The position numbers and the translations under genes were made by a program. This document shows, one piece after another, positions 13,584-17,886 of a stretch of DNA of 36,389 nucleotides (positions within the stretch are counted from its first letter, which is position 1; each line of letters starts with the position of its first letter). The notes below the pieces were generated by a model that worked only from the letters and a program-made list of their open reading frames with translations, ran no database searches and was not told the origin of the DNA. This stretch comes from Brevundimonas sp. Lineage in GTDB: Bacteria > Pseudomonadota > Alphaproteobacteria > Caulobacterales > Caulobacteraceae. The stretch is from the NCBI RefSeq assembly GCF_016463485.1, contig NZ_JAEMRD010000019.1, forward strand, positions 1-36,389, read 5' to 3'.

Positions 13584-14357
13584 ATGGACGGCAAGGCGAA
13601 GAAGCCAGGGGCGGCGGCGGCGAGGCGGTGGGCAATAGACCTCGGCATGCTGGTCGCCATAGGCGTGCTTCTGGGGTTCCTCGGCCCCTTCGACAGCGAC
13701 AGTGCGCCCGCCGTGCAGCGCTATCTCTACTGGACGATCTGCCTGGTCGGATGCGGACTGATCGGGGTCGCGGCGGACGATCTGCTGAGCCGGGTCGTGA
13801 CCGTGACGTGGCGGCGCGTGGCGCTGGTCTCGCTGTTGATCACGCCGCCGGGCACTCTGCTGGTGCTGGCGACCCAGAAGCTGTTGATGGGGCAGGCGTT
13901 CGGCTGGACGGTGTTTCTGGACCTGCTCTGGCAGGTGTGGCCGATCGTGCTGGCGGTGATGGCGGTGAGGGCCCTGGTCTGGCGGCGGCGGCCCACGCGG
14001 ATCGAGACGCGAACCGTCATCGCCCCGCCCCTGCCCGACGCCGAGGCGGTATTCAGACGCCGCCTGTCAGCCAGACGGCGTGGTGCCCGTCTGATCGCCA
14101 TCGAGGCTCACGACCACTATCTCAAGGTCCATACCGACGCCGGCGAGGAACTGATCACCCTGCGTTTCGCCGATGCCCTGGAAGACCTGGCCCAAGCCCA
14201 CGGATGGCGGGTCCACCGGTCATGGTGGGTGGCCGCCGAGGCGGTGGAAGCCGTGCGTTGGCGACGCGGCGCGGGCGAGGCGCAGCTCGTCGGCGGACTG
14301 AAGGTGCCGGTCAGTCGAAGCTATAGTGCGGTGCTGAAACAGGCCGGCTGGTTCTAG
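13584..14357 (+). CDS. Membrane-anchored LytTR-domain transcriptional regulator
   Basis: 257 residues. Four hydrophobic segments (about 17-35, 47-65, 79-97, 108-132) are followed by a basic linker (RRRPTR) and a LytTR DNA-binding domain (about 155-255). The LytTR domain has the pattern LIAIEAHDHYLKVHT, then LRFADALEDL, then GWRVHRSWWVA, then VPVSRSYSAVLKQ. These proteins bind DNA while held in the inner membrane, often with an unknown membrane signal. The ATG at 13584 has GGGA six bases ahead; the open frame continues upstream to 13458 but that stretch overlaps the hydrolase signal-peptide region and lacks coding character. It is convergent with lysC (30 bp apart). Confidence 0.88.
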   Translation: MDGKAKKPGAAAARRWAIDLGMLVAIGVLLGFLGPFDSDSAPAVQRYLYWTICLVGCGLIGVAADDLLSRVVTVTWRRVALVSLLITPPGTLLVLATQKLLMGQAFGWTVFLDLLWQVWPIVLAVMAVRALVWRRRPTRIETRTVIAPPLPDAEAVFRRRLSARRRGARLIAIEAHDHYLKVHTDAGEELITLRFADALEDLAQAHGWRVHRSWWVAAEAVEAVRWRRGAGEAQLVGGLKVPVSRSYSAVLKQAGWF

Positions 14358-14387
14358 CCGTCGCGGATGTCGAACCTCGACGTCGCC

Positions 14388-15662
14388 CTAAAGCGCGTCC
14401 AGTCCGTAGGCCGCGTGCAGCGCGCGCACCGCCAGCTCCGCATAGGCGTCCTCGATCAGCACGCTGGTCTTGATCTCCGACGTCGAGATGGCCTGGAATT
14501 TGACGCCCTTGTCGGCGAGGGCGCGGAACATGGTCTGGGCGACGCCGGCGTGGCTGCGCATACCGACGCCGATGACCGAGACCTTGGCGACGTCGGCGTC
14601 GACGCGGATTTCCTCGAAATGCAGTTCGGTCTGGGCCGCGCGCATCATCTCCTCGGCGCGCACGGCGTCACGGCGGCCCGTGGTGAAGGTCAGGTTGACC
14701 GTGCCCTCGGTGCGGGACTGGGACTGGACGATCATGTCGACGTTGACGTTGGCCTCGGCCAGGCGGGTGAAGACGTCGGCCGTGGCCTCGGTGCGGTCGA
14801 TCAGGCCCAGCAGGGTGATCCGGGCCTCGTCGCGGCTCAGGGTCACGCCCGACACGATGCGCTTTTCCACGATGTCTTCCTCGTCACAGATCAATGTGCC
14901 GGCACCGACCGGCAGGTTTCCGTCCTCGTCGGGTTCGACGAAGCTCGACAGCACGCGCACGGGCACGCGCTTTGACATGGCCAGTTCGACCGACCGGGTC
15001 TGAAGCACCTTGGCGCCCAGGGACGCCATCTCCAGCATCTCTTCGTAGCTGACGCGGTTCAGCCGGGTGGCCTTCTTCTCGATGCGCGGGTCGGTCGTGT
15101 AGACGCCGTCCACGTCGGTATAGATGTCGCAGGGGCACTCCAGCGCGGCGGCGACCGCGACAGCCGATGTGTCCGAGCCGCCCCGACCCAGGGTGGTGAT
15201 CCGGCCGCCGGGGGTCACGCCCTGGAAGCCGGGGATGACGGCGATCTCGCCCAGATCCATGGCGGCGCCCAGCACCTCGCCCGGCACGTCCTCGATGCGG
15301 GCGCGGCCGTGGGCGTCGTCGGTGATGATCGGTATCTGCCAGCCCATCCAGCTGCGCGCGTTCAGCCCCATGTTCCTCAGGGTCAGGGACAGCAGGCCCG
15401 CCGTGACCTGTTCGCCCGAGGCGACGACGACGTCGTATTCATCATCCGACAGGGGAAGGCCGGGCGCGGCGGGGCCCGTGCCGTCGGTCCAGGCGACCAG
15501 TTCGTTGGTCTTGCCCGCCATGGCCGAGACGACCACGGCGACCTGTTTGCCCGATTTGACCTCGGCCGCGACGATACGGGCCGCTCTACGGATACGCTCG
15601 AGGTCGCCCATCGAGGTGCCGCCGAACTTCATCACCAGTCGTGTGGTCGCAGGCGTGGTCAT
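14388..15662 (-). CDS. lysC: Aspartate kinase
   Basis: 424 residues. Phosphorylates L-aspartate, the first step to lysine, diaminopimelate, threonine and methionine. The kinase domain opens with LVMKFGGTSMGDLERI and contains VVVSAMAGKTNEL, VASGEQVTAGLL, TTLGRGGSDTSAVAVAAAL and IYTDVDGVYTTDPR. The C-terminal third has two ACT regulatory domains (around ITLLGLIDRTEATADVF and KVSVIGVGMRSHAGVAQ), so feedback control by amino acids is expected. The start at 15662 gives MTTPATTRLVMKFGG, matching the family; a longer frame up to 15782 reads as non-coding. No clear Shine-Dalgarno is seen. It is divergent from the toxin-antitoxin module. Confidence 0.96.
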   Translation of the reverse strand: MTTPATTRLVMKFGGTSMGDLERIRRAARIVAAEVKSGKQVAVVVSAMAGKTNELVAWTDGTGPAAPGLPLSDDEYDVVVASGEQVTAGLLSLTLRNMGLNARSWMGWQIPIITDDAHGRARIEDVPGEVLGAAMDLGEIAVIPGFQGVTPGGRITTLGRGGSDTSAVAVAAALECPCDIYTDVDGVYTTDPRIEKKATRLNRVSYEEMLEMASLGAKVLQTRSVELAMSKRVPVRVLSSFVEPDEDGNLPVGAGTLICDEEDIVEKRIVSGVTLSRDEARITLLGLIDRTEATADVFTRLAEANVNVDMIVQSQSRTEGTVNLTFTTGRRDAVRAEEMMRAAQTELHFEEIRVDADVAKVSVIGVGMRSHAGVAQTMFRALADKGVKFQAISTSEIKTSVLIEDAYAELAVRALHAAYGLDAL

Positions 15663-15802
15663 GGAAAGGGGGCGCGTCCGTGCGTCTAGAGGGTCTTGGT
15701 TGCGGCCTTCTAACGGCGGGCGGTGCGGTTCACAACGCAGCTTTGCTGTCCGGTTCCGCGAACATTCGTGATCTTGTCGCATGTCTCCAGATGGAGTAAC
15801 TG

Positions 15803-16300
15803 ATGGATGTCATGGACGGACCAACCGAGACAATATCGAACCGGATACGGCGATTGTCAGAAGCCGGTCACTCGCGCGCAGAGATCGCGCGTCTCGTGAA
15901 TCGGTCATATCAGCAGGTTCGTCAGGTGCTGGTGAACGACGCAGCGCGCGGCAGACCTTCGCCTCAAGGCGTCAGCGAGGTCGGCGTGCGCTATGACACC
16001 GAGACCCGCGGCGATCATCGATCCGACCTGCCGATCCGAATAGCCGTGGCCGGCGACGGTTCAGTCACCCTGCCGGCGGGTCTGGTTCGTCGGCTTGGCA
16101 CCTCCGAGGGGAGATTTGTCATCGGCACCTGGACAGCAACAGGTCACGGCGAGGATACGCTGACGCTTATGGGGCCGGCGGTTGCGCTGGAGAAGGCACG
16201 CGAGGGCCTCCCCGTCTGGCAACCGGGTGAGCCCCTCTGGTCCGAGGAACTCATTGCCGAGCGACGGGCGGAGGCGGCCCGGGAGGCTGCGGATGACTGA
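15803..16300 (+). CDS. Putative antitoxin with HTH plus AbrB-like domain
   Basis: 165 residues. Residues 11-46 form a helix-turn-helix of the resolvase/Hin C-terminal type (ISNRIRRLSEAGHSRAEIARLV then QQVRQVLV). Residues 77-110 resemble a SpoVT/AbrB swapped-hairpin domain (RIAVAGDGSVTLPAGLVRRLG). The charged C-terminus ([18 protein letters not shown]) is typical of VapB-type antitoxins that neutralise a PIN toxin. GGAG lies six bases before the ATG at 15803. The gene overlaps the PIN toxin gene by 8 bp, the usual arrangement of a toxin-antitoxin operon, and probably represses its own promoter. It is unusually long for a VapB, which is mostly 70-90 residues. Confidence 0.8.
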   Translation: MDVMDGPTETISNRIRRLSEAGHSRAEIARLVNRSYQQVRQVLVNDAARGRPSPQGVSEVGVRYDTETRGDHRSDLPIRIAVAGDGSVTLPAGLVRRLGTSEGRFVIGTWTATGHGEDTLTLMGPAVALEKAREGLPVWQPGEPLWSEELIAERRAEAAREAADD

Positions 16301-16670
16301 CCCGGTCCTGGATTCCTCAGCGGTCATCGCGATGCTGAGGGGGGAACCGGGCGGTGATCGCGTGATGGCCATCGGCGGAGCGGGTACGCTGTGTACGGTG
16401 AACCTGGCCGAGGTCGTGGCCCGATTGGCAAAGCTCGATCCGGCGTCCGCCAGAATCCGCACGGCCCTGCTGCCTTACCGGATCGTGGATTTCGATGAGC
16501 AGCTCGCGGTCGACGCCGGACTCCTTCGGGCCACCACAGACGCGCATGGCCTGTCGATAGGGGACCGCGCCTGCCTGGCCCTGGCGCGACGCGAAGGCGC
16601 ACCGGTCTGGACCACGGACCAGCCATGGGCGAAGGTGGACGTGGGCGTCGACATCGTTCTGCTGCGCTGA
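16293..16670 (+). CDS. PIN-domain toxin, VapC type
   Basis: 125 residues, standard for VapC ribonucleases. The four acidic residues of the active site are present: Asp7 in [16 protein letters not shown], Glu40 in NLAEVVARL, Asp91 in [12 protein letters not shown], and Asp109 in [10 protein letters not shown]. VapC toxins cut tRNA or rRNA with Mg2+. The ATG at 16293 lies inside the antitoxin gene and the two frames overlap by 8 bp, so translation is coupled. The toxin looks intact, so the system should be active. ubiG begins 17 bp after its stop, so ubiG may be read from the same message. Confidence 0.88.
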
Positions 16671-16687
16671 TCTTCGAGAGCCTTCCA

Positions 16688-17458
16688 ATGACCGCCGTCC
16701 CTGTCCACACCGCCGCCGGCCCCTCGATCGATCCGGCCGATGTGGCGCGGTTCTCGGCCCAGGCAGCGGAATGGTGGGACGAGCGGGGGCCGTTCGCACC
16801 CCTGCACCGGTTCAACCCGGCCCGGCTGGCCTTCGTACGCGACCGGGTCGGCGAGCATTTCGGGCGCAACACCCGGCGCAGGGCACCGTTCGAGGGGCTG
16901 AGCCTGATCGATGTCGGATGCGGTGGCGGGCTGCTGGCCGAGCCGATGGCGCGGATGGGGTTCGCCGTCACCGCCATCGACGCCTCGGCTGAGAACATCG
17001 GCACGGCACGGGCCCATGCGGAGCCGCAGGGCCTGGACATCGCCTATCGGTCCGCGACCGTGGAGCAGATGGAGGCAGAGAACGCCGGACCATTCGACGT
17101 GGTCCTGACCATGGAGGTGGTCGAGCATGTGGCCGATCCCGAGGCCTTCTTGCGCAGTTGCTCGCGGCTGGTGAAGCCGGGCGGGATGCTGATCGTGGCG
17201 ACGCTGAACCGGACTCTGAAGTCGCTGGCCCTGGGCAAGATCGCGGCGGAATATGTGCTGGGCTGGGTGCCGCCGGGGACGCACGACTGGCGACAGTTCC
17301 TGAAGCCCGACGAGATCCGGATGATGCTGTCGGCAGAGCCCGTGGCGGTGTCGGGACCGTTCGGCCTGTCGCTCGATCCCTTGACGGGGCGGTGGAGCGA
17401 GGGCGACGATGCGGCCATCAACTACATGATGATCGCGACAAGAGGCGAGGCGGCATGA
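16688..17458 (+). CDS. ubiG: Ubiquinone biosynthesis O-methyltransferase
   Basis: 256 residues. SAM-dependent enzyme that makes both O-methylations in ubiquinone synthesis at the inner membrane face. Motifs: [25 protein letters not shown] at the N-terminus, SAM-binding [56 protein letters not shown], and the UbiG-specific [16 protein letters not shown]. The ATG at 16688 is preferred to an upstream in-frame start that would run into the toxin gene. A neighbour divergent from or close to lysC is what I remember for Caulobacter, except that the toxin-antitoxin pair now sits between them. Its stop overlaps the next start (ATGA). Confidence 0.95.
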
Positions 17459-17778
17459 TCGAAATCCTGGCAGCGGTGACGGCGCTGCAGTCCGTCGAGA
17501 CGATCCAGCAGGCACAGCGGCTGGCGGGCGTCGTCGGCATCTGCGCGCGCTGGGAAACCGATCCCCTGCGCGTCGTCGAGGTCATCGTGGTGCGCCCCTC
17601 GGGCAATGCGACGCTGGATGCCGCCGTGCCCCCGACCGTCAAGACGACCGCCTGGCCCAGGCCGGCCGGCGATACAGGCGGGTGGACCGGGCAGTGGGTC
17701 GCCATCGGCGGGGTGCCCATCCCGCCGGGGCCCCAGCCCGACTGCTCGGCCCTGCCCGCCCCGCGACCCGCGACCTGA
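17455..17778 (+). CDS. Small hypothetical protein
   Basis: 107 residues, not recognised. The ATG at 17455 overlaps the ubiG stop in an ATGA, so it is probably translated with ubiG. The first 30 residues are moderately hydrophobic without a clear signal sequence. The middle reads [20 protein letters not shown], and the C-terminal third is rich in Pro, Gly and Trp ([19 protein letters not shown]). G/C third-position bias supports coding. A longer frame on the opposite strand over the same bases looks like a shadow. Confidence 0.6.
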
Positions 17779-17886
17779 TCGGCCGAGGCTTACGGCGAAT
17801 TCATCCAGGTTGCGGTCTTGTAACGGGACAGGTGGCTGCGGGCGGTGAGAGACAGGGGCCTTCACACGCTCCACCGGGACCATGAC

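What the first reader, a model, noticed from the sequence alone, without database searches (positions are those of the whole stretch)
15803..16670. Toxin-antitoxin module with an HTH-AbrB fused antitoxin
The antitoxin is about twice the usual VapB length and carries a resolvase-type HTH (11-46) ahead of an AbrB-like domain (77-110), so it may bind DNA with two domains. The PIN toxin has all four acidic residues. The pair sits between lysC and ubiG, which I recall as neighbours in Caulobacter, and ubiG starts 17 bp after the toxin, so toxin autoregulation could reach an essential quinone gene.
Basis: partly seen in the sequence, partly recalled or inferred. Interest (0 to 1): 0.6.

Follow-up and report, generated by a model that had tools for sequence, protein, structure and literature searches.

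The report
Toxin-antitoxin pair at ubiG's promoter
Between two housekeeping genes of a Brevundimonas-like bacterium sits a toxin-antitoxin gene pair whose antitoxin appears to have two different DNA-binding domains; in relatives of its family that carry the pair it nearly abuts the ubiquinone gene ubiG, so a respiratory gene may be driven by the toxin-antitoxin promoter.

Summary
Window 15803-16300 encodes a 165-aa antitoxin (HTH 11-50, disordered linker, AbrB-like part about 77-123, C-terminal helices); 16293-16670 a PIN (VapC-type) toxin with all four acidic residues; ubiG starts 17 nt later.

The fusion is not unique: of 75 loci from a profile scan, 68 fuse this HTH to AbrB, and 67 of 68 have a PIN gene downstream. 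I found no family model or open-access paper that describes it.

What is new is the place. All 21 hits titled Caulobacteraceae or Caulobacterales lie beside lysC, 20 with ubiG seen on the other side. The module fills the lysC-ubiG gap in 6 of 125 genomes of the window's genus and 12 of 98 others of the family. Toxin stop and ubiG start are at most 31 nt apart in 26 of 26 resolved copies, within 4 nt or overlapping in 21. In 14 of 20 empty Caulobacter/Phenylobacterium-group alleles a -10-like element precedes ubiG; occupied copies have none (0 of 26). But neither do 108 empty alleles of the window's own genus, so promoter replacement is not shown there.

Toxicity, DNA binding and transcription are untested. 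TA pairs in host operons are known; this is a new variant.

The parts
14388..15662 (-). lysC, aspartate kinase (divergent neighbour)
   Evidence: NCBIfam NF005154 572.8 bits, cut-off 376; 424 aa
15707..15735 (-). putative lysC promoter on the minus strand: -10-like GTTAGAAG (15707-15714), -35-like TTGTGA (15730-15735)
   Evidence: CTTCTA-type element found near lysC in 104 of 115 anchored genomes; 3 of the 11 without it are occupied copies (G015, G727, G741). Reading it as a Caulobacter-type -10 (GCTANAWC) uses a recalled consensus
15774..15802 (+). putative TA promoter/operator region: TTGTCG (15774-15779), 5-bp arms CTCCA-GA-TGGAG (15785-15796), GAGTAACTG directly before the start codon
   Evidence: read from sequence and compared by eye with other copies; the E. 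coli-type scan reports no plus-strand promoter, so weak
15749..16706 (+). segment that stands where the module-free sister G766 has 121 nt
   Evidence: blastn: window 14301-15748 and 16707-17800 match G766 at 92% and 91%, no long match between
15803..16300 (+). antitoxin gene (vapB-like), 165 aa, HTH + AbrB
15833..15952 (+). HTH domain, residues 11-50
   Evidence: predicted helices 11-20, 25-32, 36-50, mean pLDDT of blocks 92-98; family pattern KIRAL..AG..RAEIAR.LgKRYQHVRNVL
16031..16171 (+). AbrB/MazE-type domain, residues about 77-123
   Evidence: predicted model; family profile matches AbrB structures 1yfb and 1z0r over profile positions 77-120 and 81-120
16175..16297 (+). C-terminal helices, residues 125-165, with ELIAERRAEAARE; presumed toxin-binding part
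   Evidence: predicted helices 125-135 and 146-164; like ends in AbrB-only antitoxins with PIN partners
16293..16670 (+). PIN-domain toxin gene (vapC-like), 125 aa, D7 E40 D91 D109
   Evidence: Pfam PF01850 E 7.7e-13; acidic set conserved
16688..17458 (+). ubiG, presumed third gene of the operon; another in-frame ATG lies inside the toxin gene at 16625
   Evidence: TIGR01983 E 6.1e-78; starts

Best explanation
A chromosomal type II toxin-antitoxin module (VapC-type PIN ribonuclease plus a HTH-AbrB antitoxin) forms the first two genes of an operon whose third gene is ubiG. It lies so close to ubiG that ubiG is most likely transcribed from the TA promoter, with translation starting at or near the toxin stop codon. 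The antitoxin, holding the operator with two DNA-binding domains, represses that promoter together with the toxin, so ubiG output follows TA autoregulation. Shown by comparison: module, domain fusion, site, spacing, and, in the Caulobacter group, absence of a -10-like element that most empty alleles there have before ubiG. Inferred: toxin activity, DNA binding, co-transcription, repression.
For: Fusion family: 68 of 75 loci HTH+AbrB; PIN next to it in 65 by profile and in L143 and L150 by tblastn (L150 about 220 nt away), the last (L163) an internally deleted PIN. Site: all 21 hits titled Caulobacteraceae or Caulobacterales (or a genus of them) beside lysC, 20 with ubiG too; gap survey 6 of 125 and 12 of 98 occupied. 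Spacing at most 31 nt in 26 of 26 resolved copies, within 4 nt or overlapping in 21. Caulobacter-group pair G319 (empty) and G169 (occupied): 216/229 identical on the lysC side, 123/124 on the ubiG side from 4 nt before the ATG. -10-like element within 40 nt of ubiG in 14 of 20 empty alleles of genera g19 and g20 (shuffled mean 0.8, most 4 of 20) against 0 of 26 occupied. CTANCTA repeats before the antitoxin in 20 of 28 distinct site regions (shuffled mean 1.0, most 5).
Against: The -10-like pattern occurs in 0 of 108 empty alleles of the window's own genus (shuffled mean 3.5), so there its absence in occupied copies says nothing; the pattern was also chosen after seeing sequences, and 6 of 20 in the other genera lack it. 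No expression data. A promoter inside the toxin gene is not excluded. The window's copy is less tight (17 nt), lacks CTANCTA, and the E. coli-type scan found no plus-strand promoter. Starts are nearest in-frame choices. Most relatives lack the module, so ubiG does not need it.
Confidence: 0.65

Rival explanations
1. An ordinary TA module that sits beside ubiG without regulatory consequence: ubiG keeps a promoter inside the toxin gene, and the lysC-ubiG gap is a permissive site where several things insert.
For: 6 of the 18 gaps over 700 nt outside the window's genus hold no part of the module by profile but other open reading frames; the module is patchy (6 of 125; 12 of 98); a review says TA insertion loci are plastic and host operons work without them (PMC7167474 section 16); no ubiG-proximal -10-like element is seen in empty alleles of the window's genus either.
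Against: In the family the fused module was found only here (searches score part of the candidates), in the direction of ubiG and at most 31 nt from it in 26 of 26 resolved copies. Chance insertion does not predict that.
Confidence: 0.28
2. The antitoxin is mainly a domesticated regulator of lysC and ubiG; the toxin is dispensable.
For: L163 keeps the antitoxin and the run towards ubiG but its toxin gene has an in-frame internal deletion (38 codons left); G751 has Asn at the first catalytic position and its antitoxin frame runs on past the usual stop. A bifunctional VapB that also regulates other genes is reported (PMC10127717, start of abstract in a listing).
Against: Only two damaged copies; 92 of 93 distinct PINs keep the first Asp and 93 of 93 the second and third residues, so toxins are under selection.
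Confidence: 0.15
3. Promoter capture is a selfish trick: losing the module costs the cell ubiG expression, so the module is kept by linkage as well as by its toxin.
For: Junction 4 nt before the ubiG start codon in the G319/G169 pair and missing -10-like element in occupied copies.
Against: Empty alleles are the large majority (119 of 125 in the genus), and the sister G766 looks like a module loss that still has a ubiG start, so loss or allelic replacement happens.
Confidence: 0.18

Closest known systems
VapBC modules with AbrB/SpoVT-type VapB (Shigella flexneri VapBC, Rickettsia felis VapBC2; named in passages of PMC4803016)
   Same: AbrB-type antitoxin with C-terminal toxin-binding tail, PIN toxin, antitoxin gene first
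   Different: Here an N-terminal HTH (one or two) precedes AbrB; no such domain is mentioned for those in the passages I saw
relA-mazEF-mazG and dinB-yafNO-yafP operons, ccd in folA-apaH (PMC7167474 section 16)
   Same: A TA pair within a host operon or fixed intergenic site, patchy among strains, site undisturbed elsewhere
   Different: Here the pair comes first, ahead of a respiratory biosynthesis gene (ubiG), and the occupied site recurs in at least seven genera of one family (window's genus plus g19, g20, g333, g337, g341, g342)
AbrB/MazE/SpoVT + VapC pairs on plasmids (annotation of hits, mostly Alphaproteobacteria)
   Same: AbrB part and C-terminal end match the query to residue 146-148; VapC is named beside it in three of the 20 listed rows
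   Different: No HTH in those matches; no plasmid record matches 80% of the fused query (0 of 22 matched records)
Cbp1, CRISPR repeat-binding protein (NF040595; PDB 2lvs)
   Same: HTH sequence and fold resemblance (E 6e-5, Foldseek probability 0.92)
   Different: 22.9 bits against a cut-off of 140; no AbrB or PIN partner known to me (recall)
HTH proteins with a GIY-YIG-like second half (L164, L165, L167, L170, L178, L181)
   Same: Same RYQHVRNVL-type HTH; plasmid relatives annotated GIY-YIG
   Different: No AbrB and no PIN found beside them; Pfam GIY-YIG is seen in one of six and below cut-off (17.5 against 22.6 bits)

Membership tests
VapBC type II TA | PIN-domain toxin with four conserved acidic residues | tested here: met
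   PF01850 49.6 bits; D7 E40 D91 D109 conserved
VapBC type II TA | Small antitoxin gene directly upstream, overlapping or abutting the toxin gene | tested here: met
   8-nt overlap
VapBC type II TA | Antitoxin with a recognised DNA-binding domain (RHH, AbrB, Phd, HTH) | tested here: inconclusive
   Two different domains; in the window copy both are below every curated cut-off and rest on relatives and predicted fold
VapBC type II TA | Toxin is a ribonuclease that stops growth and is neutralised by the antitoxin | not testable with these tools
   No experiment
VapBC type II TA | Antitoxin and complex repress the operon | not testable with these tools
   Only operator-like repeats seen, and not in the window's copy
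TA module embedded in a host operon | Same direction as and nearly abutting the host gene | tested here: met
   26 of 26 resolved site copies at 31 nt or less
TA module embedded in a host operon | Host genes are adjacent without the module in relatives | tested here: met
   119 of 125 and 80 of 98 genomes have gaps under 700 nt
TA module embedded in a host operon | Co-transcription shown | not testable with these tools
   No transcript data
Cbp1 family | NCBIfam NF040595 cut-off 140 bits | tested here: not met
   22.9 bits

The most novel reading that the evidence does not exclude
A toxin-antitoxin module has captured the promoter position of a respiratory gene across a bacterial family: in occupied genomes ubiquinone synthesis (ubiG) is driven by a promoter that the two-domain HTH-AbrB antitoxin and its toxin repress, so toxin release under stress automatically raises a respiratory-chain enzyme, and the module cannot be lost without giving ubiG another promoter. 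The HTH reads 4-bp periodic CTAN operators, and HTH and operator change together (the four copies with RSYQQVRQ-type helices lack the repeats).
Probability: 0.27. Interest if true: 0.75.

Novelty: new variant of a known kind. Interest (0 to 1): 0.53.

Why it matters
It is disputed whether chromosomal TA modules do anything for their hosts. A TA pair that nearly abuts a ubiquinone gene, at one site in several genera and with natural empty-site sister strains, makes the question testable: compare ubiG expression, respiration and growth in nearly identical occupied and empty Caulobacter-group strains. The fused antitoxin also suggests that antitoxins can carry two different DNA-binding domains, with exchangeable N-terminal modules (none, one HTH, two HTHs, Xre-like) on the same AbrB-PIN core.

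Tried and rejected
Rejected: simple recent insertion into a virgin site. The sister G766 (lysC 96%, ubiG 97%) is empty, but its lysC leader resembles that of the window and of two other occupied copies (TTCACAACGC), unlike the canonical empty allele of G732, so G766 more likely lost the module. On the lysC tree the six occupied genomes of the genus need six changes (110 rows; only 25 of 104 inner branches starred), while on the AbrB+PIN tree 30 site rows, some identical, fall with 2 others in one group (95*): old occupancy with losses or allelic exchange, not settled which.

Rejected: the CTTCTAACG element as a ubiG promoter. In most empty alleles of the genus that I read it lies in the first ubiG codons; since it is kept in three occupied copies where it is not coding, I read it as the lysC -10 on the other strand (consensus recalled).

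Weakened on re-check: promoter replacement in the window's own genus.

Led nowhere: single-sequence scan of genome contigs (41 stretches, no relative), plasmids with the window antitoxin, PADLOC, solved structures by single sequence. Genome searches scored only part of the candidates (for example 12 a genome), so their counts are lower bounds; gap sizes were used instead. Foldseek E-values for the antitoxin are all above 0.1.

Not settled: whether the window copy is a mosaic. Its HTH is nearest to other copies of its genus (76%), its AbrB and PIN to Caulobacter MAG copies (49%, 57%). Its branch is long.

Rows dropped: two partial lysC matches (G743, G763) were left out; G743 has no ubiG match and G763 has it on another contig. 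Duplicates of the same locus were left out (L037, L038, L110, L177, L180 in the tree; L110, L141, L169, L177, L180), and upstream regions shorter than 110 nt or identical. could not anchor 9 of 124 genomes.

Full report
WHAT IS THERE. The window (genome G000, contig C179) carries lysC on the minus strand (14388-15662), then on the plus strand a 165-aa antitoxin gene (15803-16300), a 125-aa PIN toxin gene (16293-16670) and ubiG (16688-17458). lysC, UbiG and PIN pass curated cut-offs. The antitoxin passes none alone: several HTH models at E 0.002-0.005, Cbp1 at E 6e-5 (22.9 against 140 bits), nothing for AbrB. G+C dips to 0.62-0.63 at 15500-16249 against 0.67-0.72 around it. The genome is close to Brevundimonas: G027 and G015, called 'same genus' by the search tool, lie on contigs of the same lengths (10739 and 332563) as NZ_BSOY01000079.1 (Brevundimonas denitrificans) and NZ_JAHBYB010000003.1 (Brevundimonas sp.), with the same module. 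The window's own name is not given.

TWO DOMAINS. An alignment of 19 sequences gave a predicted structure with mean pLDDT 81.9: helices 11-20, 25-32, 36-50 (block pLDDT 92-98), a stretch 56-73 under 50, helix 92-98, strands 107-113 and 117-123, helices 125-135 and 146-164. Foldseek splits the model: the HTH half matches serine recombinase 2r0q (probability 0.99) and the CRISPR repeat binder 2lvs (0.92), the other half SpoVT 2w1t (0.84), the small AbrB-like 5itm (up to 0.89) and MazE 2mrn (0.60); no E-value is below 0.1. The family profile matches AbrB structures at E 0.001-0.002 and 2glw at 1.6e-8 over the second half. MazE_antitoxin is hit by 8 of 13 HTH-AbrB members; the window protein is not among the hits.

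A FAMILY, NOT A ONE-OFF. A profile scan of genome contigs returned 75 loci. 68 of 75 encode HTH plus AbrB; in 65 of 68 a PIN gene follows within my distance limit. Of the other three, L143 and L150 have a PIN by tblastn (about 220 nt away in L150) and L163 has an internally deleted one. Seven of 75 have the HTH without AbrB. Six of these resemble each other and plasmid proteins annotated GIY-YIG, but Pfam shows GIY-YIG in only one of six, below cut-off; the seventh has DUF7662. By title, HTH-AbrB members come from Alphaproteobacteria, Gammaproteobacteria, Chloroflexota and Entotheonella. The AbrB-PIN core also occurs with no N-terminal domain, with two HTHs (G015, G352, L125), with an Xre-like domain (L044-L046, by eye) and with other N-terminal parts (L017, L020, L021, L029). 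In 93 distinct PINs the four acidic residues are kept in 92, 93, 93 and 92; the exceptions are Asn in G751 and one truncated row.

ONE SITE IN ONE FAMILY. tblastn with the window's lysC and ubiG shows lysC beside the module in all 21 of the 75 loci titled Caulobacter, Phenylobacterium, Brevundimonas, Caulobacteraceae or Caulobacterales, and ubiG in 20 (L143's contig ends first). Four more with vague titles (L149, L166, L171, L184) have both. The other 50 of 75 have neither within the 2500 nt or less held on each side. Against a wider claim: in other families of the same order (G095, G137, G306 and G141; Glycocaulis by title for G095 and G306) the module lies elsewhere. Independently, by gap size: in the window's genus 125 of 131 genomes have both genes divergent on one contig; 119 gaps are 36-187 nt and 6 are 903-1119 nt, and all six hold the module. 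Among 98 other family genomes (111 rows pasted for each gene from capped lists, 99 in both, 1 split over contigs) 18 gaps exceed 700 nt: 12 hold the module, in six genera (g19, g20, g333, g337, g341, g342), and 6 hold other open reading frames and no part of it.

UBIG NEXT TO THE TOXIN. I count 31 distinct occupied copies (6 of the genus, 12 from the gap survey, 13 further named loci). The distance from toxin stop to the nearest in-frame ubiG start was resolved in 26 (not in G835, G796, L173, L143, L163). It is -32 to +4 nt in 21 (often TGACCATG or TGAGCATG; L176 uses TTG), and 13, 17 (window), 24, 31 and 31 nt in the other five. In G727 and G741 the ubiG ATG lies inside the toxin gene in another frame. 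Close pairs show the junction: empty G319 and occupied G169 are identical at 216/229 positions on the lysC side and 123/124 on the ubiG side, the latter beginning 4 nt before the ubiG ATG; G319 with G212 gives 219/228 and 123/124; G299 with G227 223/230 and 107/114, from 1 nt before the ATG; the more distant G222 with G905 194/231 and 82/86, from inside ubiG.

PROMOTER TEST, FOR AND AGAINST. Of 20 empty alleles (17 of g19, 3 of g20) 14 have GCTANAW- or GATAGA-like elements within 40 nt before ubiG; shuffled mean 0.8, most 4 of 20. Of 26 occupied copies 0 have one, whether the last 40 nt of the toxin gene or the 40 nt before the ubiG start is read. But of 108 empty alleles of the window's own genus 0 have it either (shuffled mean 3.5, most 9). 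The pattern was defined after looking, and the occupied stretch is coding DNA. So replacement of a ubiG promoter is supported in the Caulobacter group and not shown in the window's genus, where only position and spacing speak for it. Co-transcription is an inference throughout.

OPERATOR. The stretch before the antitoxin in many site copies carries 4-bp periodic repeats such as CAACCTACCTAACTATCTA. Lag-4 identity over 66 distinct upstream regions is 0.299 against 0.256 (sd 0.005) in shuffles; controls are 0.265 (inside the gene) and 0.282 (further upstream). CTANCTA on either strand occurs in 20 of 28 distinct site regions (shuffled mean 1.0, most 5 in 200 shuffles) and 8 of 38 others. The 8 without it include the window and the three other copies whose recognition helix reads RSYQQVRQ (RSCQQARQ in G751) instead of KRYQHVRN-type; these have TGGAG near the start, but so have 3 of the other 24 site regions and 8 of 38 non-site regions. 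Helix-operator covariation is a lead from four related copies.

HISTORY. On the AbrB+PIN tree 30 site rows (some identical) group with two others (95* SH-aLRT; three changes, shuffled mean 26). On the lysC tree the six occupied genomes of the genus need six changes. Old presence with many losses and allelic exchange both fit. The sister G766 lacks the module but shares the window's lysC leader, which reads as a loss. Two copies look damaged: G751 and L163.

KNOWN OR NEW. Makarova et al. 2009 (PMC2701414, passages) and an antitoxin review (PMC4803016, passages) list AbrB-PIN pairs and HTH, RHH and AbrB antitoxins; I saw no HTH-AbrB fusion in the passages shown. PMC7167474 (passages and section 16) describes mazEF and yafNO in host operons and ccd in folA-apaH. 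Searches for ubiG with toxin-antitoxin, VapB with AbrB and HTH, two DNA-binding domains, and Caulobacter or Brevundimonas with VapC listed no paper on this fusion or site by title or start of abstract; most papers were seen only as listings, and most subscription papers are not held. No Pfam, NCBIfam, PHROGs or PADLOC model was seen to cover the fusion. I file it as a new variant of a known kind: an AbrB-type VapBC module with an added HTH, embedded directly ahead of a host gene.

Noticed in passing
L004 / L180 (G015), L027 / L146 (G352), L125: Antitoxins of this family with two tandem copies of the HTH ahead of AbrB.
   Followed up: partly
L044, L045, L046 (same genus as the window): AbrB-PIN modules whose antitoxin begins with an Xre-like HTH (by eye) instead, found by the family profile.
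   Followed up: no
L163, 2960-3160: Caulobacteraceae MAG allele at the lysC-ubiG site with intact antitoxin and an in-frame internal deletion of the toxin gene (38 codons left).
   Followed up: partly
L164, L165, L167, L170, L178, L181; L022, L048; L047: The same type of HTH ahead of other domains: a GIY-YIG-like half (plasmid relatives annotated so; Pfam support weak) and, in L047, an unidentified domain. The HTH is a promiscuous module.
   Followed up: partly
L267, L278-L282 (G889, G875, G883, G887, G246, G792): In six Caulobacteraceae genomes the lysC-ubiG gap holds other open reading frames and no part of the TA module.
   Followed up: no
window 15707-15714 and the same place in relatives: CTTCTA[A/G]C element near lysC conserved at DNA level, in most empty alleles of the genus that were read inside the first ubiG codons (GCT TCT AAC); probably the lysC -10 on the minus strand.
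   Followed up: partly
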